A DNA stretch of 64,000 bases from Chrysoporthe austroafricana (Eukaryota > Ascomycota > Sordariomycetes > Diaporthales > Cryphonectriaceae), in NCBI GenBank assembly GCA_001051155.2, contig JYIP02000001.1, positions 6,014,001-6,078,000 on the forward strand, written 5' to 3'. Shown piece by piece: positions 43,798 to 64,000 of the stretch (positions are counted from its first letter, which is position 1; every line of letters begins with the position of its first letter). A program made the position numbers and the translations under genes. Below the pieces are notes generated by a model, which was not told the origin of the DNA, ran no database searches, and saw only the letters and a list, made by a program, of their open reading frames with translations.

Positions 43798-44545
43798 TCA
43801 AGATCGTGCATCCTGCGGCTTCCATGCCTCCCAATGAGCTGTCCACTCCTTCAACCCTGCCCAGTCGACGCACTGATGAGTCTCCCCGAAACCATGCACG
43901 CCACCAGCATCGTCATCCTTCGTCTCCACCGTCAAGTCTGGATTGCATATGAGGCTTTGCCGTAGAAGATCAACACAATGCCGGATATGAGGTGGCGATA
44001 TCATCATGGGCAGATCGCTATCGTCAACGAGCTTCCTGCCCTCTACAGCCATGTCATGTACGGCCCAGTAGCCTTGACGGATACCATTCTATCAAGTATG
44101 ATATATCAGCCAACTAATTCTCGAACGATTTGAACGTGAAGGGAGACCGTACCAAGCAGTGCAGGTAGTGGTACACTGAGAAGGTAGATCGCTTAGGAGC
44201 AATGGTGGGGTGCATAAAATACCCGGCCTGGGCAGGGAATAGATCGTTCCAGGCCTTGTCTGCATCTGGCGTGTTCTCACCGAAGGTGCGATTGTAGACG
44301 AACACATGTGGAGATGCTTCGGTTGAAGGAGCGTCAGCAGTGCTCGCACTCGGGGTCTCGGAAGGTAAGCGAAGGCCGCTGGCCTGGGCTGATAGACGGC
44401 CAAGCACGAAGCTGGCAGTGACCACGAAGACACAGGTAAGAGGCCACAGAAACTTTGAACGCGTGGAGGCTCCGCTCAGTTTCGGTGAATGTGGTGAGTC
44501 GCCTCCGTCAAGGAGCGAGTAGGCCGGACGACTTGGCCAGCGCAT
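43798..44545 (-). CDS. UstYa-family (DUF3328) oxidase-like protein, copy A
   Basis: UstYa proteins are copper-dependent, membrane-anchored enzymes that oxidise and cyclise fungal ribosomal peptides (ustiloxin, cyclochlorotine and others). Exons are 44545-44153 and 44088-43798 (227 aa); the join gives HYLHCL/NGIRQGYW. Domain order: short cytosolic N-terminus, one membrane helix at about 33-50, a Ser/Thr/Pro linker, then the two family motifs, HxxHC at 126-130 (HYLHC) and 165-169 (HIRHC), the latter followed by DLLRQSLIC. The C-terminal HQCVDW element is typical as well. All proposed metal-binding His residues are present, so it looks active. Same strand as copy B, 514 bases apart. Confidence 0.92.
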
Positions 44546-45058
44546 TTTTACCACGTGGCAGTGCCTGATGCGTTCGTATTTTGAGGAAGAGAGAATGAGA
44601 GAAGCGCAAGAGCCGTGATGCCTAGTATCTAGAAAAACCAAGTTGTGTCCTGGGCACCGTGTCTCTTATGGTGCTGAAGGTCTTGGGAATAGAAAGTGGG
44701 TCACTCTTTTCACAGGATTTGGTCATGCTTACCGGAAGAGGCAAGTCTCTCCATCGAATTTACAATATTTTTGATTTGTGATACTGAGTTCACCCACCCG
44801 AATGTCCGTCAGTCTCATAGCTGTGTGTAATGATATGCTGGGAACACCGTAAACGCAGAATTTTCTTGATGTGCGCAGTATTCACCCATATCTTCACGTA
44901 GAAAAATAGGCTAATACCAGGCTCACAACGTCCTCCTATATTGCCATGCTATCCTAAAGTTCGCAGACTTACTCCAGCCGTCTGTCAATTTCCAGGCAGC
45001 GAATTCCTATTTCTCTAAAACTTCCGACTCATGCTCCATAAGTACACTGCTGGGGCTA
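44546..45058. other. Spacer between the two UstYa genes
   Basis: Half a kilobase with the promoter of copy A and the 3' flank of copy B. No gene seen. Confidence 0.55.
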
Positions 45059-45898
45059 TCAATCTCTGCCGTCTTGATCCATTAGTGGATTTACCATGCT
45101 GTCTATTTCTTCAACGGTGACGACGCGGTCTGTATGCGAGGTCATCATGTCATCCCAGTTGACACAACGATGATCCACGCGACGCGTGTCAAAGATTGGT
45201 CTTGGGCTACCCGCATTCCATTTGAAGACGGCAAGGGCTTCGGTATCGGCGCGACAGATAGCCTGACTGCGCAGAGTCTCGATGCAGTGATCAACATGGA
45301 TCATGTGGTGGTTCCTCTCCTGAGTCGTCATGTTGGCGAGATCTTCGTAATAATCGCGCCAGCTCCAGTGTCGGAGGATCTTGACACAATGCAGCTCGTG
45401 GAATACGCCCAACCACGCCATATATCCACCGTTGGGAAGCGCAACCGAGGTCTGATTGTGCACTGCCAGCTCTTCGGCTGTGACGCGCACGGCCATGTTG
45501 CTCATAAGCTTATGCCATGCCTCCTCGCTCTCCGGACGTGGTACTCCAGCGAATGTGCTGTTGGGAAAGAAATCGAATTTTCGATACTCGTAGTTGACTG
45601 CCAGTCCAGGGAAAGCTGTAGAGGATATCAGTGTCGGAAATAACGGGAGATGAGCGCGGTTTATCATAGAACATTGCTCACCGTTGACATCGGACTTCGC
45701 CTTTTCCGCTGTTACTGAGCGCACAAATAGGATAGATGCGCCCGTGTACAGCATGATCAGAACGACTTGTGCGAGAGCTGCAGAGATCCAAAGACGACGA
45801 CTTGAATTTCGCGGCCGGGGCAACTCGTCGCTGCTTCCATCGTCGCTATGATCGCTCTGCAAGAGAGGATCATAAAGGATCTTTTCCGACTCAGGCAT
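45059..45898 (-). CDS. UstYa-family (DUF3328) oxidase-like protein, copy B
   Basis: Second UstYa-type protein, about 257 aa. Exons are 45898-45682 and 45615-45059; the 66-nt intron is a multiple of three and stop-free, so it is easily missed, but GTGAGC, CTGAT and CTACAG signals and the restored NAFPGLAVNYEYRKF support removing it. One membrane helix at about 36-58. Motifs: HELHC at 145-149 and HVDHC at 179-183, followed by IETLRSQAIC; a C-terminal HRCVNWD element matches the family. It is clearly diverged from copy A, suggesting different roles in one pathway. Its 5' end faces the precursor-like gene across 522 bases. Confidence 0.93.
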   Translation of the reverse strand: MPESEKILYDPLLQSDHSDDGSSDELPRPRNSSRRLWISAALAQVVLIMLYTGASILFVRSVTAEKAKSDVNGEQCSMINRAHLPLFPTLISSTAFPGLAVNYEYRKFDFFPNSTFAGVPRPESEEAWHKLMSNMAVRVTAEELAVHNQTSVALPNGGYMAWLGVFHELHCVKILRHWSWRDYYEDLANMTTQERNHHMIHVDHCIETLRSQAICRADTEALAVFKWNAGSPRPIFDTRRVDHRCVNWDDMMTSHTDRVVTVEEIDSMVNPLMDQDGRD

Positions 45899-46420
45899 CT
45901 CGGCTTGTCTGAAGACTGATATGCCAGACCTCGCAGTGCAGATTCGAGAATTACAAAGAGCACAGATCACAAGTGCTGAGGGAAGCAGCAGAGACTCGGA
46001 ATCGTGGAAGACGAGCTCGCCTCCCTGCTAAACTATGAGTCTGCTTGATAAAAACTCCTTTTATGCTTTAACTAAACCAGGCAGGTAACTCCGGAGGCGC
46101 AGTACAGAGAATTGCTACACAAGATCCATCGTCGAGGCCCACCTTGTTTTGTAGGATCAGACTATTGTGTTGATAAGCTTGTAGCGCGTGGGGAGGGGGG
46201 GCTGGGCTGCAGGTAAGCGCCAGGCAAGTGCAACGGCTCGTCTCCCTGCTGTGAGTTGACTGAAGTCGACGTGGTGCAGATAGAGATCGCCGGTTCCTGG
46301 CTAATGTCTCAGTATAAGATGGGCCCTAGAAACTCTCTTTTAGCTCAGCCCGTCTTTTCGTCACGGGTTCTTTGCCTCTCATCATCTCAATAATCAGATC
46401 ATCGACCTCCACGAGCCACC
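45899..46420. promoter_or_regulatory. Divergent promoter region between UstYa copy B and the peptide gene
   Basis: 522 bases between divergent starts. A TATAAG box-like sequence lies at 46313-46318, about 105 bases before the peptide start, followed by a CT-rich leader. Confidence 0.55.
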
Positions 46421-46799
46421 ATGAAGACAGCCGTATTTCTCATTCTGGCCGCTGCCCTGGGCGCCATCGCTGCCCCTATTGCCGGTAGTGAGTAACAGGT
46501 TGTGGCCTACCCATTTGAGCATACAATAACAAGCAACTAGGCGACGTTGACGATAGCTTCGTTTACCCAGACGAAGCCATCACGTACCCCGATCCAGAGG
46601 ACAGTGATGCTGATGAATACGTCATCTACCCTGATATGTATGTTTCCCGGAAGAATTCTCTTCTTCGCTTGTCTTTATGCTTGGATATACTGTTCTGGAG
46701 GGGTTCCTAGCCTCGAGTCTTCCGAGGACTCTTCTTACGGCAGACACTTACTGATGGCGAGGCATTATTCTAACGGTTGATAGCTACAACGATGATTAA
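46421..46799 (+). CDS. Small secreted peptide, candidate RiPP precursor with Tyr-Pro-Asp repeats
   Basis: Three exons (46421-46487, 46541-46637, 46784-46799) give 59 aa. Donors GTGAGT and GTATGT, acceptors CTAG and GATAG, and a TCTAACGG branch region support both introns. Residues 1-18 or so form a signal peptide (MKTAVFLILAAALGAIAA). The rest is very acidic and contains three repeats, FVYPDEA, ITYPDPE and VIYPDIY, ending YNDD. There is no Lys or Arg after the signal peptide, hence no Kex2 KR sites as seen in known dikaritin precursors. A secreted repeat peptide with Tyr in each repeat next to two UstYa genes is the hallmark of a fungal RiPP precursor; processing and product are unknown. If intron 2 were retained the peptide would instead end after a basic tail. 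Confidence 0.72.
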
Positions 46800-47254
46800 A
46801 TTCCAAGTTACTCGGGTATATAGACTCTGGTGACCTGATAGTAGGAAGTTGAGGGATCAAGTAGCACTAAGAGAGTTCTTATAAGAACCCTAAGAGCTTT
46901 ACAATTTGCATGCCCAAATACAAACATATTGGCGGGCATTATGGTATATCCTGTGTTTCACCTTTGCGTATCTCGTGATAGTCTTCTTGATGAACAGTAT
47001 TCGGTATGTTAATACATACCAATAGATCCCACGCCATTGGATCCGTAGATACGCGTTGGCATTGCAATTTGTCGAAGAGCGCTTTTTGTTGGCTCCGAGG
47101 CTTTTTCTTCCTTTTCCCCTGTAGGTCCTCGCATGGTGTGTGGAGATGGTCAAGCTTGGTAGTCCGCACTATGTCCTTATTTTAACAAAATGTCAGAAAT
47201 TCAAGGTCGATCATCTATTCTAAAGATATCTAAATGTTCAACGGCCCTACGCGT
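46800..47254. other. Convergent spacer between the peptide gene and O-methyltransferase 1
   Basis: AT-rich 3' flanks of two convergent genes. No gene seen. Confidence 0.55.
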
Positions 47255-48658
47255 TCATTTCCATATCACTTCCATCACTGCTAGGGGTCCTGTTGGCGTT
47301 ACGGACTCTAGCGAGAAACGAGCGTCAGCTTTAGCAATAAGCTCTTTCCATTGAGCTGCAGACCGCTCTTTTCCGTTGAACACAGCCATCATGACAAGGT
47401 CCTGGCCTCTGGACTCATGTTAGTAAATCACTGGCTAATTTTCAGTATCGCCAATGTCTATGACACTCCTTACCTGAGATGCCATTCTTGGATTGGTGAG
47501 ATCTCGCCCGGCGGTGGTAAACATTGGTCATTGATTATAACACGTGCTCCTGGTTTCAATGCCGGCCTCAATTGCTGCAAAATCTTCACAGCGAATTCAT
47601 CCGACCAGTCGTGGAGGATCTTTCGTAGAAAGTAGACGTCTGCGCCGACGACAGGCTGAGGCTCGAAGAAGTCGTGCGGCTGCAGAGTAATTACGTCCCG
47701 CAGCTTCTCATCAAGCGATAGGCTGGTGCGAGTCTGCTCTATGACACCTGGTAGATCCTGTACCATTATTTGCTTGATGTTCGGATACTTTTTAGCGAGC
47801 GTTATCGCAAAGGTGCCATCCGATCCGCCAACATCGACAACCTGGGCATCAGCGCCCAGGGTGTTCCAATCAAAGACCGCCGGATCCAACGCGGCTGACG
47901 GCTCCCAGCCTGGCATGCTCTGCATCACCTTCATCGCTGAGGCGAAACGTCTCGCGCGGATTTGATCCGAGGACAAAGTCTCGAAGAGGCTGACAGAGGT
48001 GCCCTCGGCAAGATTGTGGCCTGTCTGGTTTGGCAGAGTTGACCCGGGCCACCTGGTCAGGGCATCGACAGCTCGTGAGGCTGCTGGCCAAAGTTCCTCG
48101 CATGTCATGCCAACCCAGTCCATTAGAGGAGGTGAGGAGGCGAGCATCGCCGAGAGGGCTGAGTGGGCGATATGCCCCGGCCGCGGCTGAGCTAGGAACT
48201 GTTTGGTTACGGCATGCTGTACAAGGCGAGATAACGCGTCCGCGTTTGCGTCCGCGGCACAGCGTTGAGTTAGGTCGGTAACCGATATCGTCTCACCCAC
48301 AGGGAACGCCGTTGGGATTCGAAATCGATACAAGGCATGCAGACTTGTCATATCATACTCCAATATAGTAAGCATTGGAAAACCGGACGAGTGGCTCGAT
48401 GAGACGTACAGAGTGGCCCATTTGAAAGCCTAGCCATCCCATAGGACCCAGCAACAGCGCACTCAGCTCTTGGATCGCGGACAGCGCCTCGTTGATAGAA
48501 GACTGGAACGACGGTGGCAGGCTGACTGGGGCGCCTGGCTCGAAGGAACGGCTCGGCAGTCCATTCTCCTCGAGGTACGCCTCGAGACTAGTGACGGTCT
48601 CTAGAATTGATGCTGCCAGCTTCACAGTTCTTCTCGAAGAGGGAGGTATCCCCGCCAT
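47255..48658 (-). CDS. Class-II (plant-type) O-methyltransferase 1
   Basis: SAM-dependent methylation of a hydroxyl, typical of fungal secondary metabolism. Exons are 48658-48410, 48357-47474 and 47408-47255 (428 aa). Joins give GHS/YDMTSLHALYRFRIP and WHLR/GQDLVMMAVFNGKER. An N-terminal helical dimerisation region and winged helix are followed by the SAM site VDVGGSDGTFAI, a DLPGVIEQ motif, and the catalytic base region FLRKILHDWSDE with its His. Length is normal. It is head to head with O-methyltransferase 2 over 1.4 kb but diverged from it, so the two are not a recent duplicate. Confidence 0.93.
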
Positions 48659-50101
48659 GTTAGTAGCTCTCGTTGGATGAGATGGGCGGTAGGATGCCTT
48701 ATGGCGATGGCGAAGCCCTCATCTAGCTTGGGTGGTATCGATGTGCTGGAATGCCTTTGGGACAGTCTCCAGCGACAAGATATCTGGGCCTGCCAAGCTA
48801 AGGAACAGCCAGCCGTGCCTTGCGTGATGCGCCAATTCGGCCAAATTATTGTGTGGCCTTTGCAACCTTGCTGCCGCCTCCGTCTGACCATGTATGGTGG
48901 ATCCTTCTCCAGCCGAGTCTCTTGAAGTAGATTAGCATTCTACATTCTGTTCATTATTATGCTCACCGTCCGCACGACCTCTCTTACTGGTCTCGGCTCC
49001 TTCTGCAGAGACCCTCGCAAACTTGTCACAATTTGTCACAGAGGCTGATAGGAGCCCTGTTGTAATTAGCACATCGTCAGCCGCAAGCGCGGTGCAACTT
49101 TCCACAACAGGATGGTCGCGGCTAGAATCACGGCGCTCCAAAAGGCCGGCGCGCTGCTGACAGCCCAGAAATGGCATGCCGAATAACACTGCTGCGAACG
49201 GGAGACATGGCTGTTTGAGGATCAAATATTTTCTACAGGGTCTTGTTCTTGCAATTCGCATAGCACGAAAGGCTATCTAGATCCTTCGCGGCAACTGGTG
49301 GGTCGGTCAGACTACATAGGTACCTTGCAGCAGCCTCCTGCAGCCGACAGCCACCGACTTAGGCCAAAAGCGTTAGGACTTATTGCTGCAGTAAGCCTAT
49401 AGTGAAATCGCTTTTGTCTGGGCAAGTGGAGCATTTCCACCCTGCTGAACACCTCCCAGCCACGGGAAAGCAGGGATGAAAATACAGGCGTGGTACGAAA
49501 TTCAGTTTCGCGAGGCCGACTATATGAACTTTATCTGCATGCTTACATAGCCTTCCGGGAGAGGAGAGCCCCATCTGCTCCGGCCTGGGGACAGTGAATG
49601 ATGGCTCTCGAAAGACAACCTATCTGGTAAGTGCTGACCTGGCTCGTATGCACATGGGATCCTTTGGCGATGCCTAGATGCATGTGACTGGCCCTGTTTT
49701 GCTTTGTGCTTGGCTCTGATGAATGTACCAAAGCAGGTACTTTTTGGCCCCCAAGATGGACAACGAAGTCGCTATGTTGTCTGTGTCCCATACATTCGGC
49801 AGCCCTACTACCCAAGTTGTCTCAGTGCTTAACCCCACTTGTGCAGTGAATCCTCGCAGCCATGTACTCCTCCTCACTTGCAATTTCCGTGGCTGTTGTT
49901 ACATTAGGCTGATAGTCTCGTGGGGCTGACGCAAGTATATTGGAGTTCTCAGTTTAGGCCTGGTTAAGCCGAGATATGAGACCTACGAGACCGTCATCGA
50001 CGCCCGACCATTCCGATTGCTTTGAGTATTACATAGGGACTCTGGGCACATCACTTCCCTTGTCTCCATCGAACTAAACTCCAAAGCCAACCACACCCAC
50101 A
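48659..50101. promoter_or_regulatory. Divergent region between the two O-methyltransferase genes
   Basis: 1.4 kb carrying both promoters. An open frame of 109 codons at 48932-49261 (-) begins with a hydrophobic Cys-containing stretch but has no family match and is not called. Confidence 0.5.
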
Positions 50102-51332
50102 ATGACCTCTTCCAAAGACATTGATGCTCTTCTGGAGCAGCTCCACACGGCAGCCTCCCAGAGCGATGAGACGCGCAGTCAGGTGCTCGACGGATTGCAA
50201 GCCCTTCAGTACAAGCTCGAGGCTTCACAAGACACTACCTTGCGCTTCACCAACCTACAACTTCAGACAGCTGCAGCCCAAATCGGCGAAGACATCAAGA
50301 TCTTCAAGATTCTATCAGAAAGCCCGCAGCCCGTCAATGTTACCGACTTGGCGGTCCAAACCGGCGCTGCACCGCTGCTGCTGAGTACGCCATTCCAAAA
50401 ATAACCCAACGAGGACCGTCGAATGGTCATGGATTCTAACGTTCTCTACAGGTCGTATTCTGCGCTATCTTGCTTCCGTGGGCCAGATCAAGGAAACGGA
50501 GCGGGACGTGTTCACTGCCAACAACATCACTAAGACATTGGCCCAGCCTGGCTTCCGCGGCCATATCTACCACACATTCCACACCGTTGGCACCATTTTG
50601 CAAGCATTCCCCGACTTCCTTGCAGAGACTAAGTACCATGATGTCGATAATGTGGCCAAGACAGCTGCACAGAAGGCCTTCGGGATCGACATGCCCGGAT
50701 TTGTTTGGCTCCCGACGCAACCCGAGCGCTTTGAGGCCTTCCAACAGGCGATGACGGTTCAGCCTCAGAACCGCATACCTTGGTTCTCGGTCTTCCCTCT
50801 CGAAACAGAACTCAAACTCGACACCTACTCAGGAACGCATGCACTTGTTGATGTTGGTGGCGGCTTCGGTCACCAATGCATGAGCCTAGCCGCCGCGTTT
50901 CCGGCTCTCCGCGGAAAGCTGGTGCTGCAGGAGCTCCCACAGACGGTTGCGATGCTCCCACCCCTTGAGGGCGTTGAGGTGATGGCCTACGACTTTTTCA
51001 CGCCGCAGCCCATCAAGGATGCGAAGTTCTACTACCTGCGCAATGTGATTCACGACTGGCAGGACGAACAGGCTGTCGCGATTCTGTCCCAGGTCCGGGC
51101 CGCATTAGGGCCCGAATCGCAGGTGCTGATCGACGATATCGTGCTCCCGACCTCTGGTGTCCATTGGCACGCAGCAGCCTACGATCTTATCATGATGTCG
51201 TCGTTCAGCTCGCGTGAGCGCACCATCGACGAGTGGCATGCCTTGCTGGATAAGGCCGGCCTGCGGATCCTCAAGGTCCACACTTACTTGCCTCGACGGC
51301 AGGACTCTATCATCCAGGCTGTGGCGAAGTGA
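50102..51332 (+). CDS. Class-II O-methyltransferase 2
   Basis: SAM-dependent O-methyltransferase resembling those of aromatic polyketide and peptide pathways. Exons are 50102-50384 and 50452-51332 (387 aa); the intron (branch TTCTAAC, acceptor CTACAG) joins LLLS/RILRYLASVGQI in the winged helix. SAM site VDVGGGFGHQ, acidic LQELPQTV, then the catalytic YYLRNVIHDWQDEQ with the base His. The C-terminal part (MMSSFSSRERTIDEWHALL) is typical. It precedes the FAD monooxygenase by 400 bases on the same strand, which suggests a shared pathway. Confidence 0.94.
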
Positions 51333-51732
51333 GCATTACGAGGATGATAGCAGCTGCGTCGTAACGTCGCACCACATATGCCGGAAACACGAGTCTGGGG
51401 AACGTCACTGGCAACTAGGTTTGTAGGGTACTAGAATGATATCGAATTGCACACCAGGCGACCTTGTCTTGTTTATGATTTTCTACGAGACAACGTGGAG
51501 ATGTGTACCCATGTAGACTAGCTCGCCACAAGTAACCATTCAATATGGGGAGGGTTTCCCTGGATTGCTATTCCCAGAGGCTCGTTGCTCCACAACCTTC
51601 TCCAACCACCATTGCAGGCTCCGGCCGAGACCGCAGAAATCCGGAATCAGAATCGTTACAAGGGGCAACAAGAAGTCCCTCGGCTGATCACGACCTAGAC
51701 GCTGTGAGATCATCGGTTATTGACATCGGAAC
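51333..51732. other. Spacer between O-methyltransferase 2 and the monooxygenase
   Basis: 400 bases of 3' flank and promoter. No gene seen. Confidence 0.5.
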
Positions 51733-53112
51733 ATGGGCAGTCTGCACGTTATAATCGTCGGTGCTGGCATTGGCGGCTTGCAGGTTGCTCTCGCTCTGGC
51801 TAAAGATCAGCATCGAGTCACGATCCTCGAAGGCACCAAGGAGTTTTTAGAGGTAAGTTGGGACCAGAACATGTGTTGTGGATCGAAAGGATCTGAAAGG
51901 AAGCAGGTTGGCGCTGGCATCCGAGTGCCACCAAACTCGTCACGCCTTTCGCAATCGTGGGGCGTGGACTTCGATTCGATCAAGACGGAGACGAGCTTGG
52001 GCAATCGCTTCGTAGACTGGCACGGGAAGCATCTTCTCGACTGCGACTTCACCGATGTCCGCGAGAGATATGGAGCTCCCTATTACTTTATTCACCGAGC
52101 TGACCTCATCAAGGCCCTCGTCGTTGCGGTCCAGAAGAGCAAGTATATCGAGTTGCGCATGAACTCCCGGGTGAGCGATTTTGACTTCGATACTCCGAAG
52201 GCTCGGTGTGCCGATGGCTGGGTCCAGGGGGATTTGCTCATCTGCGCGGATGGAATCAAGTCGGCGGCTCGCGACGAGATCAACAGACAACCTATCGAGC
52301 CTGTTGACACGGGAGACGTGGCCTATAGGATCCTCGTCCCAACGAAGCCCTTGCTCGAGGATCCTGAGATGCGGGAATATGTGACTAATCCATGGGCTGT
52401 GCACTGGATGGGACCAGAGGCTCATGCTGTTGGATATCCACTGAGAGGCGGCGAGCTCTACAACATCATCATCGACGTAACACACAAAACAGATCTCGGG
52501 CGTCCGATCGGAATCGATGAGTGGCGGTCTGAGGCAGACAATGCGCACCTCGTTAAGAGGTTCAAGGAGTGGTGCTCGCCCGTGAGGAAGCTGTGTGCTA
52601 TTACTGGGACCTATCTTAAGTGGAAACTGGCAGACTTCGATCAGCTACAGCGATGGGTCCACCCAAGTGGTAAAGCAGTGCTTCTGGGCGATGCGTGTCA
52701 TCCCATGATGCCCTACATGGCCCAAGGAGCTGCTCAGGCGACCGAAGATGCCGCCACTCTAGCGGCAGCCCTCCGCGAGTACCCTGGTGATATACGCAGA
52801 GCTCTCATTGCTTATCAAAGCCAACGTCTGCCCCGGGCTGCGTATGTGGCCAAAAACACCAGAGTCTTGCAAGAGTGGCTTCATCTGTACGATGGCCAGG
52901 AGACAGAGCGGCGAGAGGTTTTGTGTGCATCTCCTGACGGAGATAACCCCTTCTTTTGGGGGAGCATGCAGAGGAGAGACTGGCTCTTTGGTCATAACGC
53001 AAATATATTGGTGAATGAGTCGATTCCGGACCTGCCACCTCTGCCCAGCACCCAGGCTAGGGTTTATAGAGATGAAAATGGAGGGCTACGGTCGACGGAA
53101 AAGAGTCGATAA
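51733..53112 (+). CDS. FAD-dependent monooxygenase, salicylate-hydroxylase-like
   Basis: Group A flavin monooxygenase that hydroxylates or epoxidises with NAD(P)H. Exons are 51733-51852 and 51907-53112 (441 aa). The 54-nt intron is in frame and stop-free; GTAAGT and GCAG signals plus the family join KEFLE/VGAGIRVPPN support it. FAD motifs: GxGxxG at the N-terminus (VGAGIGGLQ), the DG motif (LLICADGIKSA), and the GD motif (LLGDACHPMMPYMAQGAAQA). No membrane anchor or signal peptide is seen. In the cluster it could oxidise the peptide or a co-substrate; the sequence alone does not decide. Confidence 0.94.
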   Translation: MGSLHVIIVGAGIGGLQVALALAKDQHRVTILEGTKEFLEVSWDQNMCCGSKGSERKQVGAGIRVPPNSSRLSQSWGVDFDSIKTETSLGNRFVDWHGKHLLDCDFTDVRERYGAPYYFIHRADLIKALVVAVQKSKYIELRMNSRVSDFDFDTPKARCADGWVQGDLLICADGIKSAARDEINRQPIEPVDTGDVAYRILVPTKPLLEDPEMREYVTNPWAVHWMGPEAHAVGYPLRGGELYNIIIDVTHKTDLGRPIGIDEWRSEADNAHLVKRFKEWCSPVRKLCAITGTYLKWKLADFDQLQRWVHPSGKAVLLGDACHPMMPYMAQGAAQATEDAATLAAALREYPGDIRRALIAYQSQRLPRAAYVAKNTRVLQEWLHLYDGQETERREVLCASPDGDNPFFWGSMQRRDWLFGHNANILVNESIPDLPPLPSTQARVYRDENGGLRSTEKSR

Positions 53113-53659
53113 CTGGCTACTACCTTCAAATTATATAGAGTATCAAGTGACTAAACGCTTATACTCATTATATCCTAGCCAATGAATGACATGAAGCAGA
53201 TGGTCTCCGGTAAGTCTTATAATTTGGCGTTAGAGCTTACTTCGTTGGGCAGTAACTAGGTCCTTTGCATTAGAGTTCTTACGCCTCATAAGGGTCATAA
53301 ACTCTGATAAGAGCCGTACGAGTGCTTTCGGACAACAGGTTAAATGTACTGCTGAACGTCACCCTCGGGACTTGTGTCAATCACTCATCCTCTCGCGTGT
53401 ACATTGCTAGCAGAGCCTAAACAGCCCCAGTGTCTGTTGAAGCATCAAAAAGGACCGCACCAGTCCATATTTCTTTTTTTTGTATTTGAAAAGGGGGAAG
53501 GGGGGTTTTCCGACTGAGCCGCGAACATGCCCTTCTATGTCTTATCTACCTAGGCAATGACACCGTACACTACCACTAGCCTTTCGTATAGCAAGTCCAG
53601 CTTTGCATTTTTGTGCGAGCAGCCAAGTCCAAATTATCCCCTTCAAGACAACCGTTGGA
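53113..53659. other. Convergent spacer
   Basis: 3' flanks of the monooxygenase and the exporter gene. No gene seen. Confidence 0.5.
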
Positions 53660-55769
53660 TTACAGCTTGAATTTTTCCATCTTTCGGAGCCGCTTTCCAA
53701 AACGGTGAAAGATGATTGGTAACGGTATCATAAGAATACATAAAAAGCCTAGCAGGGAATTGCCCCAGCCAAGACCGAGTGCGTCGTACATTGGTGTTCC
53801 GGCGAGGGGCAAAAGAGCACCAACTAGGCTGCGCAGCTCAGTATTTGCGGCAAGCGCTGAAGCTGCGTACATAGGGTAAGCGTCGACGAGATACCTGTTG
53901 ATTAATGAGTGTCCAATGTCTCATAGCTTTTCTTTGCGGGGAATTGGGGGCGATGTTAAGATGATAAAAAGCACTGGGCAGCTCACGTGTTGATGGGAAG
54001 AAATAGACCCATTATGCCAACGCCGAAAGGAATTAGGCTTATGATAGCCGACATCCATTGCACTTTATACTCGGTACACCAACCGTACCAGAAAAAGGTA
54101 ATGGGCAACAGCCAGGAGAACCAGATAGCCAGCCAGAGCCTCATCTCGGGCTCAAACTCGCCATCATTCTTCTTAGCAAGGCGAATGACCGTCTTGTCGG
54201 AGTACAGCGTAATGATGAGCCACCCGATGGTCGTACCGCTTCCAAGACCCAGGTAGACGAGGCCTGTTAGACCAGTGTTGAAGCCGTATGTATCCTCGAA
54301 GACAGTAGGAATTGTGGTGAAGAGCAGATAGAGCGTGCCGTATGTAAAGGACATGTAAAGAGTCAGAAGAAAGATGATAGGAGACAGGAATAGCATCTTG
54401 ATAGGCCGAACGAGACCATTAAACAAGATTCGGCTGCCGGATAACTTCTGCGCCTCGGAGTTCTCGTAGCAGCTTCTCAAGTCGTCTCGGCCGAGTTCCT
54501 TCTTCAGCCGGCTCACCTTCTTTTGGATGAGAAGACGGTGGCTGGTCTCTGTGTTGAATATTTCGATAAAGACGGATATCAGAACGGCGACTATCAACAC
54601 GATCCAGAAATCCCACCTCCACCCTAAGGTTTCGGCAATGAATCCCCCTATTAGCGGACCGATTGTAGGACCTGCGTTACTTCTTAGTACTAGCTATCCG
54701 AGATTATGGGCCTGTGGTTGAATCTGAGGCCTGATAAACAAAGGGCTGACTGACCGAAGAGTGGACCAATAACCCACATTCCCATGGCGAACCCTCTCTG
54801 TTCAGGACGAAATGTGTCTGCGATGACGCCACCGCCCAGAGTCAGACAGCCTGAGCCACCGACACCGGTGAAGAAGCGGAAGACGATGAGTGCGCTGATG
54901 TTTGGTGCGAGGGCGCACCCGATCTGCCAGCAACAGAAGAAGACATTCGCCGCGGTCAAGACGGGCCGTCTCCCATATATTTCGGACAATGGCGCCAAGA
55001 ACATCGGACCGACCACGTAGCCGAGCAGATAAATGCTGACCGTCATTGCCCCTATGATGGCATTGGACTCGCCGAATTCCACCATCAGACTCGAAATTCC
55101 CGGCGAGAGGATCGAGGAAGCGAAGGGCGTGACCAGAGTGATACCCGAGAGCAGGCCCACGAGCACCCACTTCTTGAACTCCGGAAAGTTGAGTGGCATC
55201 GCTGGATCATCCTGCCCGTCCCACCCGACGATACCGGCGTCGAGATCCATTTCGGGTATGAGATCACGTCTGATACCCTCGCTCTTGTCCCCCTTGCGAC
55301 TCCGTCGGGTGAAGACCCGTGAGACCTTGGAACGGAGCGTATGTTGGCTCTCGATCCTCCGGATGTTCTCAATGTCGCCTGCCTATGCACGGCCGTAGCG
55401 TCAGCTCGATCATTCCCAAGCTCTGCGAGAGCGTACGCTTCCTGGAGAACCCACTCTGCTCAGCTGGCGGTCGAGTTCGTGGCCAGCCACTACCTCCTCC
55501 GCTTCCTCATATTCGAGATCGGGCTCGCCATGGTCCGGCTTGTCCGTGATGTATCCGTCATTGTCCTGCTCCCCCCCGTCAGCATTCTTCTCAGGATCTC
55601 GAGCAATGTTTTGCTGCCGTGTGCTTCCTGGCGTGTCGATCTTGTCATCATCAACTTCTGTGCTTGTTGATCCGGTGGGCGATTGTCCGCGCAACCTCAT
55701 GCGCGGGATTTCTGCAGCCTGCTCCGTCCCGGGCGAGTCTGCCTGGGGAGCTATGTCTTTCTCATCCAT
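53660..55769 (-). CDS. MFS transporter of the DHA1 drug:H+ antiporter type
   Basis: Twelve-helix proton-driven exporter; this family commonly removes cluster products. Four exons: 55769-55437, 55382-54755, 54671-53987 and 53894-53660 (626 aa). The first donor (GTACGC) is one of two options; GTGGGT at 55455 is the other, and it removes a few residues. A long charged N-terminus of about 165 residues ends before PEFKKWVLVGLLSG (TM1). Motif A reads APLSEIYGRRPVL, and TM5 has GPLFGPTIGPLIGGFIAE, the antiporter motif C, restored by a splice join. The C-terminus is YLVDAYPMYAASALAANTE through to a short basic tail, as in fluconazole-resistance-type proteins. Confidence 0.92.
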
Positions 55770-57128
55770 CCTGACGTCGCTCCACTGCTAGTGGTATCAT
55801 GAATACCACCGAGTCTTGTCGAAGACTGGCTGGTGATAATAATTGAGAGATTCAAGGAGGAGAGGAGGCGGAAGATGGGTAAGAATGAATTTCTAAGGTT
55901 CTTAAGGGTAGATCGGACCCGGGATCTGCAAGCCTAGGAACAGCAGCCACATAATAGTGAGGCAGGAAGCCGCATAACGCAGTCAGCTCGAGAACTAAGA
56001 GTGCAGACGTTGTCCTATGGTACTACAGCTGCCAGCTGCAGCCGTATGAATACCCAGCTGCAAACAACAAGGACTATTACAAATACGGCATCCCCCGGAA
56101 ATAACGGTCTTAAAAGTATGCCAGCCGGGAGAATGAACTGCATATTGTGGCGCATCATGTCTTTTTCGCCCGCTCTGATTCATTCAGCAGATTTCAGCTA
56201 GCAGGGCCGGCTGGGAATTGCCTCCCACACCTCGCAAGCCGGCTTCGGCAGTCGATCCAAGCGCCGAACCGTGACAAGGGGGGGTTTCCGCAGGAAGGGC
56301 CTGGCTTGCCTGACAGTAGACAGAGAGGCGTCGAAGAGGCTAGGCGTTGTTAGGGAAGCCGGTGAACATTTGCTACTCTGGCTCTGGTGGCACACCGCCG
56401 GGCAGGCTTCATTCAGCTGTGCTCCGTCTGACCAAGGCGCGCCACGAGAAGGAGCTGCAGAGATCCAGGGCGCACGAGTTGCACCGCTTTCGCAAGGCTC
56501 CCGCGTATCCTGGCGGGTCCCATCGCGACGCCTAATCGCTCCTCGCCCGTCGCTAGTCAGCGTCCCCCCCCCCTCCGTCCTCTCAGTCTTATGCCGGGCG
56601 GCCCGGCTCATCCGCCCTCACGCCCGATTCGCATGTCTTCTCGGCCGTACATGTGCAGTAGAGGTACCTCCTCGGCTCCTCCGTGCCCATCTGCCTCGTC
56701 TCGGGTCCGAGGGCCAAGCACGAGACCCGGGGTGCACTCGCTAGCCAGACGGCCCCGGCTTTGTGCATGACCGTCCGCAGCCACGACATATTTGAACAGC
56801 GCTTCAGAACTCCCGAGCACGAGTCAACGCGTGAGCGACGCGGAACAACGCTAGCCCTTGCGAGGAAGAGGGGATAGGTGCGGCGTGCCGGGCTCGCGCT
56901 TTCTGGATCGCGAAACAATTTTGCTGCCGGTACTTGCTGCATCACCTCGCCGCACGGCGCACCTGCAGCCTGGATCAGCAAGGGGCCACGCCTCGCCAGG
57001 CTCAGATTGGCGCCCAGCTCTGCCAATAGCCACCCTGCCTCGCAAGGGGGGCCACCGCCGTGCAGCCCGGGGCCCAGTCCTGTACCCACCCGGGTCCTCA
57101 GGTGCGCACGTGTCCGAGGGGTATCGTC
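55770..57128. other. Intergenic region at the right edge of the peptide cluster
   Basis: 1.36 kb between divergent MFS and regulator genes. GC content rises from about 56.2 kb, marking return to GC-rich sequence. ORFs on both strands from 56.2 to 57.1 kb are composition artefacts; none has a domain signature. Confidence 0.5.
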
Positions 57129-59918
57129 ATGCTTGGAAACGCATCTTTGCCGTTGACTGCATACGAAGATCTCACGCCGTCCCTCACACTAGACAAGATG
57201 TCGCAGATATCGCCATCACATGCTCCCCTGGCGGCTATGCCAGGCAGGCCCAAAGCACCCTTCGCGCCCGGGCAGCGGTTCAACAAGGCGTGCGATTCCT
57301 GCCATGTCTCCAAGGTCCGATGCGTGCCCGACCCTCAGTCGCCCATCGGCACCTGCAAGCGCTGCACCAAGAACGCCACGCCGTGTGTCTTTTCGCCTGT
57401 GGGGCCGAGGAGGCGTCCCGTGAGGACCAAGAACGACCGGATCGCCGAGCTGGAGCGTCGGGTCAAGGACATGCAGCTGAAGTTAGAGAAAGAAGTCGAG
57501 AAGCGCTCTGGCTCGGATCCTCGTCGCGATCCCTCATCATCCAGCCCCGGGAAGGCCTCCGCGTCTCGGCTGAGGTCCGCCTCTGATCCTGATCCCGGGT
57601 CCAGCTCCGGGTCCACCACCACGACGGCCCCGTCTACCACAGGCCCGGATGCAAAGAGACCTGAAGTTTCTGGATCGCTCCAGACGACCGAGAGCGCTGC
57701 GGCAGAGTTGGCCTTAGCTGCACTGCGTATTTCCACCGCACCAGTCGATGCTGCTGCTGCTGCTGCTCTCAACCCCCGGCCATCTTCCAGACGAGAGGCT
57801 GATGTGGTCGAGCAGGGGCTCATAACGAATGCCCAGGCCGACAGGCTCGTGCGGGAGTTCCGGCTTCATATATCCGGGAAGTTCCTCGGGATATGCTTTC
57901 CGGACAAGATTAGTCCGGAACGAATCCGCCGCGAGAGACCGACCTTTTGGCTCAGCATCCTCAGTGCAGCCTCAGCCGGCAGTGCAGAGTCTCTGGGCCT
58001 GTCGCCCGTCTTGTTTGGAGAACTCAAGAGGATCTTAGACTTTCGCTTATCGCACGCAGCCGAGCCAGACCTTGACACCCTCCAGGCGCTCATTAATTAT
58101 ATTGGGTTTTACTACGATCCTGTTTCTTCCATGGGGCCTAAGGTGATGGCGATCAGCCACGCCGCTATAAGCATGGCTGTTCAGATGGCAGAGGCGTCCG
58201 CTGTCCATGGCCTTCCTGATGATTGTATTTTGACCGAAGGCGATGTTACCGATGAAGACGTGCGGCTCTCGCGCGAGCTGCTGCGCTGGTACTGGGTCAG
58301 CATCTCGCTCCTCGTCAAGAACCGTCAGGTCAAGAGCCATCGGCTCACTATACTGCGTCTGATACACTTCGTCAACCCGAGCGTCCGTGTCCTGCGCACT
58401 ACACAGAACCATGACGATATGCGCTTGCTCGAGTGGATCAGACTGGTGCAGATTACAACTGAGGCAATCTTTGCACTCCATCGAGGCCACACGAGCGGGA
58501 CCTGCGGGTTGAGCGACGCGGCTCGGGACGCTATCCTGGAGTCTTTCGACAGGAAGAGGAAACAGTGGCTTGTGGACTGTCCCTTCGATCTTGTGAATGG
58601 TACGCCCTTTTGCCGAGATATGCTCCCGCTCCCGGTTCGCACCACGACGCAGGCCCCTTGCTCACACATTGAACAGAGGTTCTGATGCTGGACTACCATT
58701 ACTACGTCTTGCTTGTGTAAGTGTCCCCAGAGGTCAGGCTCCAAATCTATGAGTTTACCACTGACCTGTCATTCTTCTCTCAGCTCGGAATTCGTCTACC
58801 CGGCGGGAGTTGCGGACTTCAAGAGTCGTAGCCATGGGCTTCCACCCTTGTCCACGGCGAAGATCAATACTGCCCCAAGTCCAGACCAGAACTTCTTTGC
58901 TCCGTACAAGGTCAGCTATACTCGGAAGTGCATCCGTGCTGCCCAGTCCTTGCTCGATGTAGTGACGATCCACACGGAGTCGAACGACTTCAACTCAATC
59001 ACCCCGCCGGACATTTTTCGCCGTCTCGGCGCGTTCCCATACGGCAGATTTTTTTATGCCCTCCGCTTCCTGCTCTTTGTTTCCCATGAGATATTTAGGA
59101 CGAAGAGGTACGATGTCGTCACCACCGAGTCGCTTAGGGTGGACTCGTACATCGCGTCCATCAAGAGGCGGCTGACAGCTGCCGCGTCCGGGGGAAGCTA
59201 CCGGTATCCCTCGCTCTGGCTCTACGCCCTCACGACACGGATCGAGCCCTGGTGGCGTGAGCTGCGGGCCCTCCTGGAGAGAGACAGACCTGCAAAAGAC
59301 GCGAGTCGGCCGCCGGACGAGACGTCGGAGTCGTGCGTCGTAGCCTCGCCAACCGAAAAGGGCGGTACACCTACAGGGCCTGAGGGCCCGCCGGTGCACG
59401 CTGACGATAGCTGGTTTAACGGACCCATGTCACCTCTGCTGCTCGAGCTCCCTTTTGAATTCTTCTCCTCACCGGACGTCTTCCCCATGCCGCCACCTCC
59501 TGCCCCCGAGCCCTCGGAGGACATCTCCAGGCCGAGCGTGTCTCGAAGTCACAGGACGTCCTCTGCTCTAACGAACCCCTCCTTAGGGGCTCTATATACG
59601 TACAGATCAGCCGACGCATCTTCGGTGCCACAAACGGACCCAATGGTGGACAGGTCACTGGGCCAACCCCCGGCCTACAATGAAATGCATGTGCTGGCTG
59701 GAATCGGCCAGGTAGATCCCGCCGGCGACCTTGACACTTGTCTTGAAAATATGGATCTGGATCCCTTTAATCTCGACTGGGGGGCTTTTGGTGAGATATT
59801 GCCTGGCCCGGACATGCTTTTCTCCCAATGCTCTCTAAATATGCCTGTGAGCACAGCACATCAAGCTGCACTAGGTGATCAGGAGCAAGGTGACGATCGT
59901 GGAGGTGATGGTGTTTAG
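57129..59918 (+). CDS. Zn2Cys6 fungal transcription factor
   Basis: Nuclear regulator with a Gal4-type zinc cluster. Exons are 57129-58599, 58677-58716 (40 nt) and 58784-59918 (881 aa); joins give LVN/EVLMLDYHYYVLL/VSEFVYPAG. The zinc cluster begins ACDSCHVSKVRC and continues with CKRCTKNATPC, six Cys in all. A basic linker and a coiled-coil-like RIAELERRVKDMQLKLE follow. The fungal-specific middle region covers about residues 220-590. The tail is disordered with acidic and hydrophobic patches near the end (ENMDLDPFNLDWGAF), a plausible activation domain. A later ATG at 57198 is an alternative start with A at -3. It may control the neighbouring cluster, but its high-GC codon use resembles core genes. 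Confidence 0.88.
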
Positions 59919-60254: not shown

Positions 60255-63124
60255 TTAAAGGTTGCGAAATGCCTCGCCAAAGATTTCTCGGCTCCTGAGC
60301 AGATTCAATAGCCGTATGCGCTCGTTCTCCAAATGTGCCGAATCAGTCGCTTGTCCACAGGGCAGATGCGCGACGGGCGCTCCGAACTCCTTCTCGAGGA
60401 AGCGAATGGCTGGGATGGACCCACCCTCCCGGATATACAGTGGTCGTTTGCCCTTGATGGTAGGCTCTGCCGCGGTAGCAGTATCTTCCTCTGGGCTAGT
60501 TCCCTTGCCTTTGTCCTCTCCTCTGTCCACCCGTGAGCCATTTGCTGGAACCCCGTTCCGCAGCTTACCGTCAGGCGCTGCTCCTGACAGACCCCAGACC
60601 TTGATGATGGCCTCCTCCAGTGTTTTGAAGATCTGATTGTTTGGGTCTCCCAGCCACGGCTCAGCTTTGTTGTCAATCTTGATAGTCAGGGTGTTCTTGC
60701 TCTCCAATTCGGCAAACTTCGCCCTCAGAAACTCCTTCAGTGATGTAACGATTTCATCGACCTGCTGATCCGGCACAATGCGGAACGAGATGGTGGCGCT
60801 TGCATGACTACTCACGACACTTTCGTCCACGCCCGAGACCTTGGTTCCGTGAATCGTGAGATTGGGCTCCCGCCACCGTGCCATCAGACTAGTCTTGAGC
60901 TGCTCGACAGTGCCACTTTGAGGGTTGCGGCGGGTGAGAATCTTGACGATCTCCTCATATCGGGCCTCCTCGTCCGGCGTTAGAGGCAGAACCGCATCGT
61001 AGAAGTGTGGGACCATAATCTTGTTTCGTGGCCCTTTGAGCGAGGTTAGGACCTGCATCAGGTCCGCAAGCGGTTCATCGAGCATGTGGCTGCCGTCTAC
61101 TCCAGAGTGCAAGTCAGGGTAGGCACTGTCGACGCAGATGGTGGCATGCAGGACACCGCGCAAGCCGTATGTGAGGCAGGGCGTCTCGTCGTCGATCCAG
61201 TAGCTGTTTGCAAGAAGAATATAATCGACATTTCCAATCAAATCTTTGTTCTTCTTGATCGTCTCCTGGAAGTTGCGACTTGTGGATTCCTCTTCACCCT
61301 CGATGAGAAAGACGACATCGGAGTTGAGCTGCTGCGCCTGCAATAGGTCGGTCACAGCATAGAGCGCCGCCATGATAGGACCCTTGTTGTCACTCACGCC
61401 ACGGCCGTAAAGATAACCGTTGATGCCCTCCATCTGGAAAGGATCCGTGACCCATTTGCTCTTGCCGTCACGGTCTGCAGGGACGACGTCGTAGTGACCA
61501 TAGAAAAGAATACGCTTGCGCTTCTCGGCGGGCTCCAATTTGCCGCTGAAGACAGCGCAAACGACAGGATTATGCAGCTTCTCAGTAGAGAGCATGTTCA
61601 CCTGTGCGCCCAGCCGCTTGAAAAGGTTGCACAAGAAGCTCGCCCCTTGGCGACACTCCTCGGCGAACTCAGGGCGGGCGGAGACGGTCCGGTACGAGAC
61701 GAACTCCCGGAGCGATGATAGCATGGTACGCTCGGATTCGTCTGGGTTATCGTCGAGCTCTTCCTGGATCCCATCCACGCGCCACACGCTGAGGTTATTG
61801 TCATTAGCGCCGGTGATGTAGTAGTTGTGTCCCTTATAGGTGGTGCACGCGGATGATAGGATCTTGCCCTTATGCGCCTTCCAGCGAGAAAGGCACCGAT
61901 ACTTCTGGCTCACCTTCTCGGAAGCCTTGTTGGAGTGAACGGTACTGTGTCTCTGCTGATTGTCAGATGATCTGGTCGGATGCAAAGCAGAAGGCCAGAA
62001 GGTGCTAGGACAGTACTCACTGCGGCCGTCCCAGTCGTGGACGCGGACCAAAGGTAGCCCCAGGCCATCTGGAGGGACATGATGTCGCCGTGGCGACCAC
62101 TGTCGCCGCGGTGGTCCTTGATGACCCGCAGCTTCTGCTTGGTGTCGAGGTCCCACAGTTCGATGACACCCCTCTTCTTGCCGCTATAGAGGAAGGATCC
62201 GTCGATGGCGATATGGAAAACAGATTGAGCGTCTTGTTCCCCGAGACACATGATCTCGCGGTGCTCCCACGCCTCCCATTCCTCCATGCCATCGTACTTT
62301 TCGTCCTGTTTGATCTGCCATAGCTTGATGCGGCCCTCGCCGCCACCGGTGATCAAGACCTCCTCGTCAGGATCCACGAGGACGGTGGGACCCTTGGCGA
62401 TGAACATGCAGTAGATGAAGCCAGAATGAGAGCGGTTCCCAATGGAGGAGCGGTAGATTTCCAGCGTCTCGTCCGCGGGCGGGATCAAGACCTCCCTCTC
62501 GTCTTTCCTCCGAGGCGTGCTCTTCCCCCCAATGGCCTTCGAGTCGAAGAACGTGTCTATGCGCTGGTTCGGGTGGTTCGGGTTGTCATGAGGAACTCGG
62601 CGGTCGGGATCGCTTAGCTTGACCCACTGTATGGAGGTGTTCTGTGCGCCTATGTAGACGGTATCCTGTTGGGTGGAGTAGGCGCAAGAGAAGACATCTC
62701 CGATGTGGTCGGGCCAGTAGATCTCGTAGAGGCGCGCGAAGGTGTTGGGGCACCACACGGAGACGACGGCGTCCCCAGCACTGGAGACCAAGATGGACCT
62801 GGGGGCGGGCCCGGCGATCGGGGACGACGAAGAGTAGGAGGCGGCGGTCGGGGCGGACTGGGAGGTAGTGTCGGAGAGGTAGAGCCATAGGATGTGGCGC
62901 TTGTGGGCCTGGAAGCGCCTGACGAGCTCGAAGGTGGCAAGCGACCAGACAAAGATCTCCCCGGTGTGGGTGCCAGCGAAGATGTACCTGTCGCTGACGG
63001 CGAGCGTCAGGACGGTCTCGTCGTGCTTGAGCTCTTGTATGCGCTGGGGAGCGTTGAACTGGTCATCGTGGTAGTGCGAGGGGCTGTTGGTAGCAGCGGG
63101 GAGTGTCGACCTGAGCGAGGACAT
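60255..63124 (-). CDS. dug2: WD40 repeat - M20 metallopeptidase protein DUG2 (glutathione degradation)
   Basis: Subunit of the Dug2-Dug3 complex that removes gamma-glutamate from glutathione in the cytosol. Exons are 63124-62021 and 61952-60255 (933 aa); the join gives TGTAA/RHSTVHSNKASEKVSQKY. The frame is open upstream of 63124 but has no earlier ATG. The N-terminal half (to about 440) has WD40 blades, e.g. HTGEIFVWSL and GGGEGRIKLWQI. The C-terminal half is an M20 peptidase with metal ligands in GHYDVVP (His521), GRGVSDNKGP, IEGEEEST and the final His of QATDSAHLENE. A charged insert lies near residues 840-870. The WD40-M20 fusion is diagnostic. Confidence 0.95.
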
Positions 63125-64000
63125 GACGCTCGGAGACGTAGCCGTGACGATATCGAGGTCGGTGTCGGTGTCGGTGTCGGTGTGGGCGATGATATCAGGA
63201 GCTGGGGCTGGGGCTGGAGCTGGAGGACGAAACGAGTTAACGAATGTCTCGAGACTGGCGCGAGCGGATCGTAACTGAATGTGGCACCAAGATGTAGCAT
63301 ATATCACAGCCTCGAGGCGAGATGGGTTGTCGGGAGTCGGGTTGAGAGTTGAGTTGTGTTCTCCCGATGCTCGAAATGACGCCACCGCCAGCCAGGTCCC
63401 ACTAGGCCCTCTTACATAGCAGTAGAAGAAGGCGTGTCAGTGCGGACCGAGGAGGGGGAGGTCAAGGCTGTGGAAAAGCTGTCGACCACAGCCCACCATG
63501 GCTCCCAATGGACCTATGCGCATCCAGGTAGTACGGTAGAAGACCACGAGGCTGACAAGCCTTGTGGGAAGGATATGGGATTCGAGATCAATCGACTAGA
63601 TCTTCGTGGTATTGAGTGAGACAGGGACAGGGGGTTGTTAGAAGGCTTCTAGGGCTGAGACCCACTGGAGCGTACCATAGTACTGCCATACTATGCTATG
63701 GGATCGGGGCCTGGGTGACCCGCTAGGGCCCGCATGGGGGTGCTGCTATAGGGGGGGTGTTGAGGTGGTGCCAGGGGCTTCAGTGACGTGCGCCTGCCCA
63801 GCTTGACAGGAGGAAAGCGTCGGCAAGACTGACCATCCACAAGATTCTGCTGCCCATACCTCCTAGCTTCCGTCTCCTGGATCCTTCTGCACCCCAGGCA
63901 GTCTTCAGAGCCCCCAGCATCCCCGGTCTCCGAGGCTGGCGGCGTGGGGATGGGCGCCACGCCGTGTCTGTGAAACGAGGTCATCGTGGAGAGGGCGCCG
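63125..64000. other. DUG2 upstream region and right window edge
   Basis: Includes a TCGGTG hexamer repeat (63159-63182) followed by GGGGCT/GGAGCT units to about 63226 in the DUG2 leader. Farther right, a minus-strand open frame from the ATG at 63984 (MTSFHRHGVAPIPTPPASET start, EDCLGCRR nearby) could be a first exon with a donor at about 63862, but no second exon was found. Confidence 0.4.
63159..63226. repeat. TCGGTG hexamer repeat and G-rich repeat in the DUG2 leader
   Basis: Four direct TCGGTG copies at 63159-63182, then GGCTGG/GGCTGGAG units to 63226. Confidence 0.75.

What the first reader, a model, noticed from the sequence alone, without database searches (positions are those of the whole stretch)
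43798..55769. Candidate undescribed fungal RiPP gene cluster with two UstYa oxidases
Seen: two intact UstYa (DUF3328) genes, a small secreted Tyr-repeat peptide gene, two O-methyltransferases, an FAD monooxygenase and a DHA1 exporter within 12 kb, bounded by gene-poor DNA. Known: ustiloxin, asperipin, phomopsin-type and cyclochlorotine clusters pair UstYa proteins with methyltransferases or oxidases and MFS proteins. Inferred: this is a RiPP pathway of a new type, since the precursor lacks the usual dibasic cleavage sites and no peptidase of the ustiloxin type (S41) lies nearby.
Basis: partly seen in the sequence, partly recalled or inferred. Interest (0 to 1): 0.88.

Follow-up and report, generated by a model that had tools for sequence, protein, structure and literature searches.

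The report
Possible Kex2-free fungal peptide cluster
Near a contig end of a fungal genome, a tiny gene for a probably secreted peptide with three Tyr-Pro-Asp repeats sits beside two UstYa oxidase genes; it looks like a pathway for a modified peptide, but the peptide lacks the usual cutting sites and the link between the genes is unproven.

Summary
Within 12 kb lie two intact UstYa (PF11807) genes, a three-exon gene for a 59-residue, probably secreted peptide with three YPD repeats and no Lys/Arg in its mature part, two PF00891 genes, an FAD monooxygenase and an MFS gene. No PKS or NRPS condensation domain was found within 680 kb on the contig. The peptide gene is unlikely to be chance and is divergent from one UstYa gene across 522 bp. 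At 6 of 18 other UstYa loci read in this genome I found repeat precursors with basic sites, so a Kex2-less one is the unusual point. A missing S41 peptidase is no evidence: the genome gave one S41 match, far from the UstYa loci. The right half is doubtful as part of a peptide pathway: the two 'methyltransferases' are nearest, among solved structures, to LepI and HpiI-type enzymes, the monooxygenase to decarboxylative vanillate/4-hydroxybenzoate enzymes, and the listed monooxygenase relatives come from other species than those of UstYa-B. Most likely: a minimal UstYa-peptide module beside a possibly independent aromatic-tailoring set. No relative of the peptide was found, so whether it travels with the UstYa genes could not be tested.

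The parts
43798..44545 (-). UstYa-A (DUF3328/PF11807), 227 aa, exons 44545-44153 and 44088-43798, HxxHC twice, one hydrophobic N-terminal stretch (by eye)
45059..45898 (-). UstYa-B (DUF3328/PF11807), 257 aa, exons 45898-45682 (or 45683) and 45615 (or 45616)-45059, HxxHC twice; 32 relatives at 36-73% identity
45899..46420 (.). 522-bp divergent region between the start codons of UstYa-B and the peptide gene
46421..46799 (+). peptide gene (candidate precursor), 59 aa, three exons, three YPD repeats written with three different Pro codons, no Lys/Arg in the mature part
47255..48658 (-). OMT1 (PF00891), 428 aa, three exons; nearest solved relatives 7bqj and HpiI, but with an HDW motif
50102..51332 (+). 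OMT2 (PF00891), 387 aa, two exons; nearest solved relative LepI (278 bits); His at the place of LepI R295
51733..53112 (+). FAD monooxygenase (PF01494), 441 aa, two exons; nearest solved relatives are decarboxylative vanillate / 4-hydroxybenzoate enzymes
53660..55769 (-). MFS transporter (PF07690), several exons; gene model not completed, left end read by eye
57060..59918 (+). two frames of a likely Zn2Cys6 regulator gene (PF00172 in the first, 22.9 bits); membership of the locus unproven

Best explanation
The left part (UstYa-A, UstYa-B and the YPD peptide) is a minimal ribosomal-peptide pathway of the UstYa kind. Shown: the genes, their motifs, the divergent arrangement, the repeats, the lack of basic cleavage sites. 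Inferred: the peptide enters the secretory pathway; the two UstYa proteins, probably membrane-anchored copper enzymes, oxidise its Tyr-containing repeats (FVYPD, ITYPD, YVIYPD), most likely joining a Tyr ring to the side chain of a nearby Val, Thr or Ile, as ustiloxin and phomopsin join Tyr and Ile. The repeats are released, if at all, by a protease other than Kex2, or the whole peptide of about 40 residues is the product. OMT1, OMT2, FMO and the MFS may add to or export the product, but could equally be a separate aromatic-tailoring unit.
For: Gene structure with two consensus introns; the only hit of a (post hoc) rule-based finder in 13 kb. The three YPD units use different Pro and Asp codons (TACCCAGAC, TACCCCGAT, TACCCTGAT), so they are not a fresh DNA duplication; since the units were picked as identical in protein, this is compatible with selection but does not show it. 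Divergent 522-bp spacing from UstYa-B; in a survey of 1461 genomes the count of DUF3328 genes peaks next to Kex2-repeat precursor genes (PMC7329392, passages). The third repeat contains YVIY, which fits the YXIX core described there. No ketosynthase, condensation or DMATS domain near (adenylation domains only partly scored, 14 of 94 candidates). Both UstYa proteins have both HxxHC motifs, which in CctR form a binuclear copper centre (PMC12435403, part 1 of 3 read). At 6 of 18 other UstYa loci read in this genome a repeat precursor lies within the stretches read.
Against: No Kex2 site at all, unlike the 6 precursors at other UstYa loci. No relative of the peptide in a 5.8-billion-protein collection nor elsewhere in the genome, although UstYa-B has 32 relatives; that small spliced genes are seldom annotated is general knowledge, not tested. 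Repetition in so Tyr/Pro/Asp-rich a peptide is only mildly unusual. UstYa proteins also serve PKS and NRPS pathways (PMC12048977 section 22). No expression or product data.
Confidence: 0.5

Rival explanations
1. The UstYa pair, OMT1, OMT2, FMO and MFS tailor a non-ribosomal small molecule (for example a 2-pyridone, or a simple phenol) whose backbone enzyme, if any, lies elsewhere in the genome; the peptide gene is a bystander.
For: OMT2 is nearest among solved structures to LepI (278.5 bits over residues 7-373), OMT1 to 7bqj and HpiI (148 and 136 bits). FMO is nearest to decarboxylative vanillate 1-hydroxylase (258 bits) and an enzyme named 4-hydroxybenzoate decarboxylase (252 bits). DUF3328 proteins occur in polyketide pathways such as atpenin A4. 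The genome has ketosynthase and condensation domains close together at several other places.
Against: No PKS or NRPS near. OMT2 has His where LepI has Arg295, and OMT1 has HDW where 7bqj has HKE, so both look like ordinary methyltransferases rather than pericyclases. It does not explain the peptide gene divergent from UstYa-B.
Confidence: 0.27
2. Two independent neighbours: a UstYa-peptide module on the left, and on the right an aromatic-compound unit (FMO, OMTs, MFS, perhaps the Zn2Cys6 regulator) that oxidises, methylates and exports phenols. This overlaps with the best explanation and differs only in where the pathway ends.
For: None of the 14 species named among the 32 UstYa-B hits is named among the 120 listed FMO hits (the genus Xylaria is in both), and no longest-contig length is shared; no 10-mer common to five promoters; no OMT or FMO relative at the 18 other UstYa loci read (FMO represented by its relative P0035).
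Against: Only 120 of 419 FMO hits were listed and only 7999 candidates scored, so linkage could be missed. 24 nine-mers (<=1 mismatch, both strands) occur in all five promoters, slightly more than in any of 10 shuffled sets (6-20). Genes are tightly packed (455 bp between peptide gene and OMT1).
Confidence: 0.4
3. The peptide is a small secreted acidic protein that is not modified by UstYa.
For: Very acidic, no Kex2 sites, no relative found.
Against: Tyr-containing repeats next to a UstYa gene in divergent orientation.
Confidence: 0.15

Closest known systems
Dikaritins / ust-RiPS (ustiloxin, phomopsin, asperipin-2a)
   Same: UstYa genes next to a gene for a small, probably secreted peptide with Tyr-containing repeats; YVI as in the cores YVIG and YVIP
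   Different: No Kex2 site; no tyrosinase match in the window; repeats of about 5 residues, where the published repeat lengths are 13, 14 and 8
KEPs (Kex2-processed repeat proteins)
   Same: Putative signal peptide and repeats
   Different: KEPs were required to have >=3 repeats of >=8 residues between KR, KK, RK or RR (PMC7329392, passages); here there is no such pair
Lichen RiPP clans R1/R2
   Same: UstY homologues, in clan R1 with an O-methyltransferase; no precursor with conserved repeats was found there (PMC12048977, passages and section 22)
   Different: Clan R1 has tyrosinase and FGE-sulfatase and its OMT lies between the two UstY genes; here no tyrosinase was matched, FGE-sulfatase was not searched for, the OMTs lie outside the UstYa pair, and a repeat peptide is present
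LepI and HpiI-type O-methyltransferase-like enzymes of 2-pyridone pathways
   Same: Nearest relatives of OMT2 and OMT1 in the PDB
   Different: R295 of LepI is His in OMT2; OMT1 has HDW where 7bqj has HKE; no PKS-NRPS near. (That 7bqj is PdxI, and that HpiI and PdxI are pericyclases of 2-pyridone pathways, is recalled, not from a call.)
CctR of the cyclochlorotine pathway
   Same: Same family and the HxxHC(x)nHxxHC motif
   Different: Acts on a non-ribosomal peptide

Membership tests
UstYa/DUF3328 proteins | PF11807 match over cut-off | tested here: met
   both genes
UstYa/DUF3328 proteins | two HxxHC motifs | tested here: met
   both proteins
UstYa/DUF3328 proteins | copper-dependent oxidase activity | not testable with these tools
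   shown for CctR; the AlphaFold model of the homologue P0003 is only moderate (pLDDT 72, pTM 0.60) and matched no solved fold at E <= 0.001
Dikaritin cluster (2015 five-gene definition as quoted in PMC12048977) | precursor with leader and repeated core motifs | tested here: inconclusive
   putative signal peptide and three YPD repeats; core boundaries unknown
Dikaritin cluster (2015 five-gene definition as quoted in PMC12048977) | tyrosinase | tested here: not met
   no PF00264 match in the window; nearest on C1 at 5.22 Mb
Dikaritin cluster (2015 five-gene definition as quoted in PMC12048977) | methyltransferase, several DUF3328 genes, transporter or peptidase | tested here: met
   that the OMTs and the MFS belong to the same pathway is unproven
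Dikaritin (2021 definition: DUF3328 as class-defining enzyme) | DUF3328 enzyme acting on a ribosomal peptide | not testable with these tools
   enzymes present; action on the peptide unproven
KEP precursor | >=3 repeats of >=8 aa between dibasic Kex2 sites | tested here: not met
   0 Lys/Arg in the mature part
LepI-type pericyclase (OMT2) | residues H133, R197 and R295 | tested here: not met
   H133 aligns with His, R197 with Arg (weakly aligned stretch), R295 with His
PKS/NRPS cluster | ketosynthase or condensation domain nearby | tested here: not met
   nearest on the contig 2.4 Mb and 0.68 Mb away

The most novel reading that the evidence does not exclude
A new subclass of fungal UstYa RiPPs whose short precursor carries several tandem YPD cores and is matured without Kex2, either by another protease or as one multi-crosslinked mini-protein, with LepI-clade methyltransferases and a salicylate-hydroxylase-type flavoenzyme acting on the Tyr rings.
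Probability: 0.2. Interest if true: 0.75.

Novelty: new variant of a known kind. Interest (0 to 1): 0.47.

Why it matters
Published mining for these pathways looked for Kex2-separated repeats. A UstYa pathway with a tiny Kex2-free precursor would be missed by such searches and could help explain UstYa loci that seem to lack a precursor; in this genome 12 of the 18 other UstYa loci that I read showed none by my simple search, which looked mostly within 5 kb and can miss spliced genes.

Tried and rejected
A relative of the peptide: none in the protein collection, none in the genome but itself. UstYa-B relatives with DNA context: none confirmed in prokaryote genome contigs (15 pattern matches) or viral contigs (42 pattern matches); the session allowed no metagenome scan. 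FMO relatives as a linkage test: no overlap, but 120 of 419 rows visible. Solved relatives of UstYa-B: none. Fold search with the model of P0003 (made from 30 of the 32 hits): 5 hits, best E 2.7. Shared promoter motif: 24 nine-mers with <=1 mismatch in all 5 promoters against 6-20 in 10 shuffles, 0 ten-mers and 0 eleven-mers; the slight excess is not taken as evidence. S41 absence as a mark of novelty: rejected. DMATS as backbone: none on C1. UstYa-A's best match among the fetched loci is at a Kex2-repeat locus (L027:8757-9188, 59.9 bits, next 36.3), but not reciprocally, so not used. Synonymous codons in the repeats as proof of selection: withdrawn as circular.
Full report
What is there. The window is C1:6014001-6078000 of a 48-Mb fungal genome in 22 contigs; the contig is 6,134,125 bases long, so the locus lies 64-76 kb from a contig end. 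UstYa-A and UstYa-B match PF11807, have complete spliced frames and two HxxHC motifs each, and are 26% identical over 220 columns, so they are no recent duplicate. OMT1, OMT2, FMO and MFS were confirmed by Pfam and, except MFS, by full gene models.

The peptide gene. Exons 46421-46487, 46541-46637 and 46784-46799 give MKTAVFLILAAALGAIAAPIAGSDVDDSFVYPDEAITYPDPEDSDADEYVIYPDIYNDD. Donors are GTGAGT and GTATGT, acceptors CTAG and ATAG, and intron 2 holds CTAAC shortly before its end. Several other splicings listed give longer chains; I prefer this one because it uses the two best donors and keeps the repeats. A rule-based finder returned this model as the only hit among 15 signal-peptide-like starts in 13 kb and none among 55 starts in 91 kb of control DNA. 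At other UstYa loci the same rule gave 8 starts of 102; 4 belong to three likely precursors (L021, L027, L031 with two starts) and 4 are spurious by my reading (one membrane-protein-like frame in L018 and three low-complexity frames on the other strand of the L026 precursor), all four longer than 100 aa. Random sequences gave a hit in 2 of 1000, but they contain fewer suitable starts (3.95 on average). The rule was set after seeing the peptide. The three YPD units differ in Pro and Asp codons: no fresh duplication, but no proof of selection either. There is no Lys or Arg in the mature part.

Context in the same genome. PF11807 gives 50 exon-level matches, grouping within 15 kb into 29 loci including this one. 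I read 20 stretches of 10 kb that cover 18 of the other 28. Repeat precursors with basic residues between the repeats were found at 6 of 18: L021 (KRCSYN), L026 (14 KRHTYGV units), L031 (SYGKY/SYGTY with KR) and L032 (REPHHQGKGKK) by repeated 5- or 6-mers; L027 (DGFKR) by repeated tripeptides; L023 (RSYLIVSADEEPST, only two copies) in a looser search of 17 of the 20 stretches. By the published KEP rule L023 would fail and L027 is borderline. Other rows (frames without a plausible signal peptide, frames on the other strand of a precursor, or chance two-copy matches at L019, L020, L024, L027, L030, L034) were dropped by eye. At L026 a tyrosinase match lies at C16:43776, near the UstYa match at C16:42892. 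So this fungus has ordinary precursors elsewhere and the present peptide differs from them.

Backbone and peptidase. No ketosynthase or condensation domain lies near, no DMATS on C1; adenylation domains were only partly scored (14 of 94 candidates); terpene synthases and type III PKS were not searched. The genome gave one S41 match, C12:1397560, about 489 kb from the nearest UstYa match, so the missing S41 says nothing about novelty. An M20-peptidase frame and a WD40 frame follow to the right of the locus (60255-63385); together they resemble Dug2 (recalled), an ordinary glutathione-breakdown protein.

The right half. Among solved structures OMT2 is nearest to LepI (278.5 bits) and OMT1 to 7bqj and HpiI. 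LepI acts in leporin biosynthesis (abstract start); H133A, R197A and R295A greatly impaired it (PMC6533283, one passage). OMT2 has His, Arg (weakly aligned) and His there, so it probably transfers methyl groups. FMO is nearest to decarboxylative vanillate and 4-hydroxybenzoate enzymes; in NCBIfam its best model is 3-hydroxybenzoate 6-monooxygenase, 215.5 bits against a cut-off of 459. Its relatives, 120 of 419 listed, include many Mycena species, black yeasts and others; none of the 14 species named for UstYa-B relatives is among them and no contig length is shared. Five promoters share no 10-mer within one mismatch. No OMT or FMO relative turned up at the other UstYa loci read or in 40 kb of outer flanks. 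These results weaken the single-pathway reading without excluding it.

Mechanism. CctR shows DUF3328 proteins to be membrane-associated dimers with a binuclear copper site at HxxHC(x)nHxxHC, needing dioxygen and electrons (PMC12435403, part 1 of 3). In ustiloxin and phomopsin the cores are YAIG/YVIG and YVIP and the ring closes between Tyr and Ile side chains (PMC7329392, passages). The third repeat here, EYVIYPDIY, contains YVI; the other two have Val or Thr before Tyr. I infer oxidative Tyr cross-links in or between repeats. Release of cores is the open step.

Novelty. The literature searches cover only open-licence papers; one search was mostly irrelevant (40 of 508 listed) and one search listed 15 of 103. 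None of the listings showed a UstYa pathway with a Kex2-free repeat precursor. Of four papers opened, I saw passages of three (PMC12048977, PMC7329392, PMC6533283), one section of the first, and part 1 of 3 of the fourth (PMC12435403). The lichen paper discusses loci without repeat precursors and suggests a precursor elsewhere or a single core (section 22). I rate this a new variant of a known kind if the peptide is the substrate, at about even odds.

Noticed in passing
L026 (G000:C16:38000-47999), about C16:40.2-41.1 kb, minus strand: Ustiloxin-like locus: precursor frame with 14 KRHTYGV units and a signal-like N-terminus (by eye), a UstYa match and a tyrosinase match within 4 kb.
   Followed up: partly
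L031 (G000:C16:770500-780499), + strand from about 7310: Tyr/Gly-rich repeat precursor (SYGKY, SYGTY with KR sites) near a UstYa match.
   Followed up: no
L021 (G000:C16:262000-271999), + strand from about 829: 126-aa precursor with three KRCSYN(W/R)IKR units beside a group of three UstYa matches.
   Followed up: no
L032 (G000:C17:954800-964799), minus strand: Repeat precursor frame with REPHHQGKGKKAGAV units (di-histidine type) near a UstYa match.
   Followed up: no
L023 (G000:C4:570000-579999), minus strand about 4332: Short precursor-like frame with two RSYLIVSADEEPST repeats beside several UstYa matches.
   Followed up: no
L027 (G000:C18:168000-177999), minus strand about 6675: Precursor with DGFKR(S/D/G)EEDIDIA units between two UstYa matches.
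   Followed up: partly
window 51733-53112: The FMO is 67-72% identical to proteins of about 20 named Mycena mushrooms, as close as or closer than to most named ascomycete proteins listed.
   Followed up: partly
window 60255-63385: Minus-strand frames with an M20 peptidase domain and WD40 repeats, resembling Dug2 (recalled); looks like a housekeeping gene bounding the locus.
   Followed up: partly
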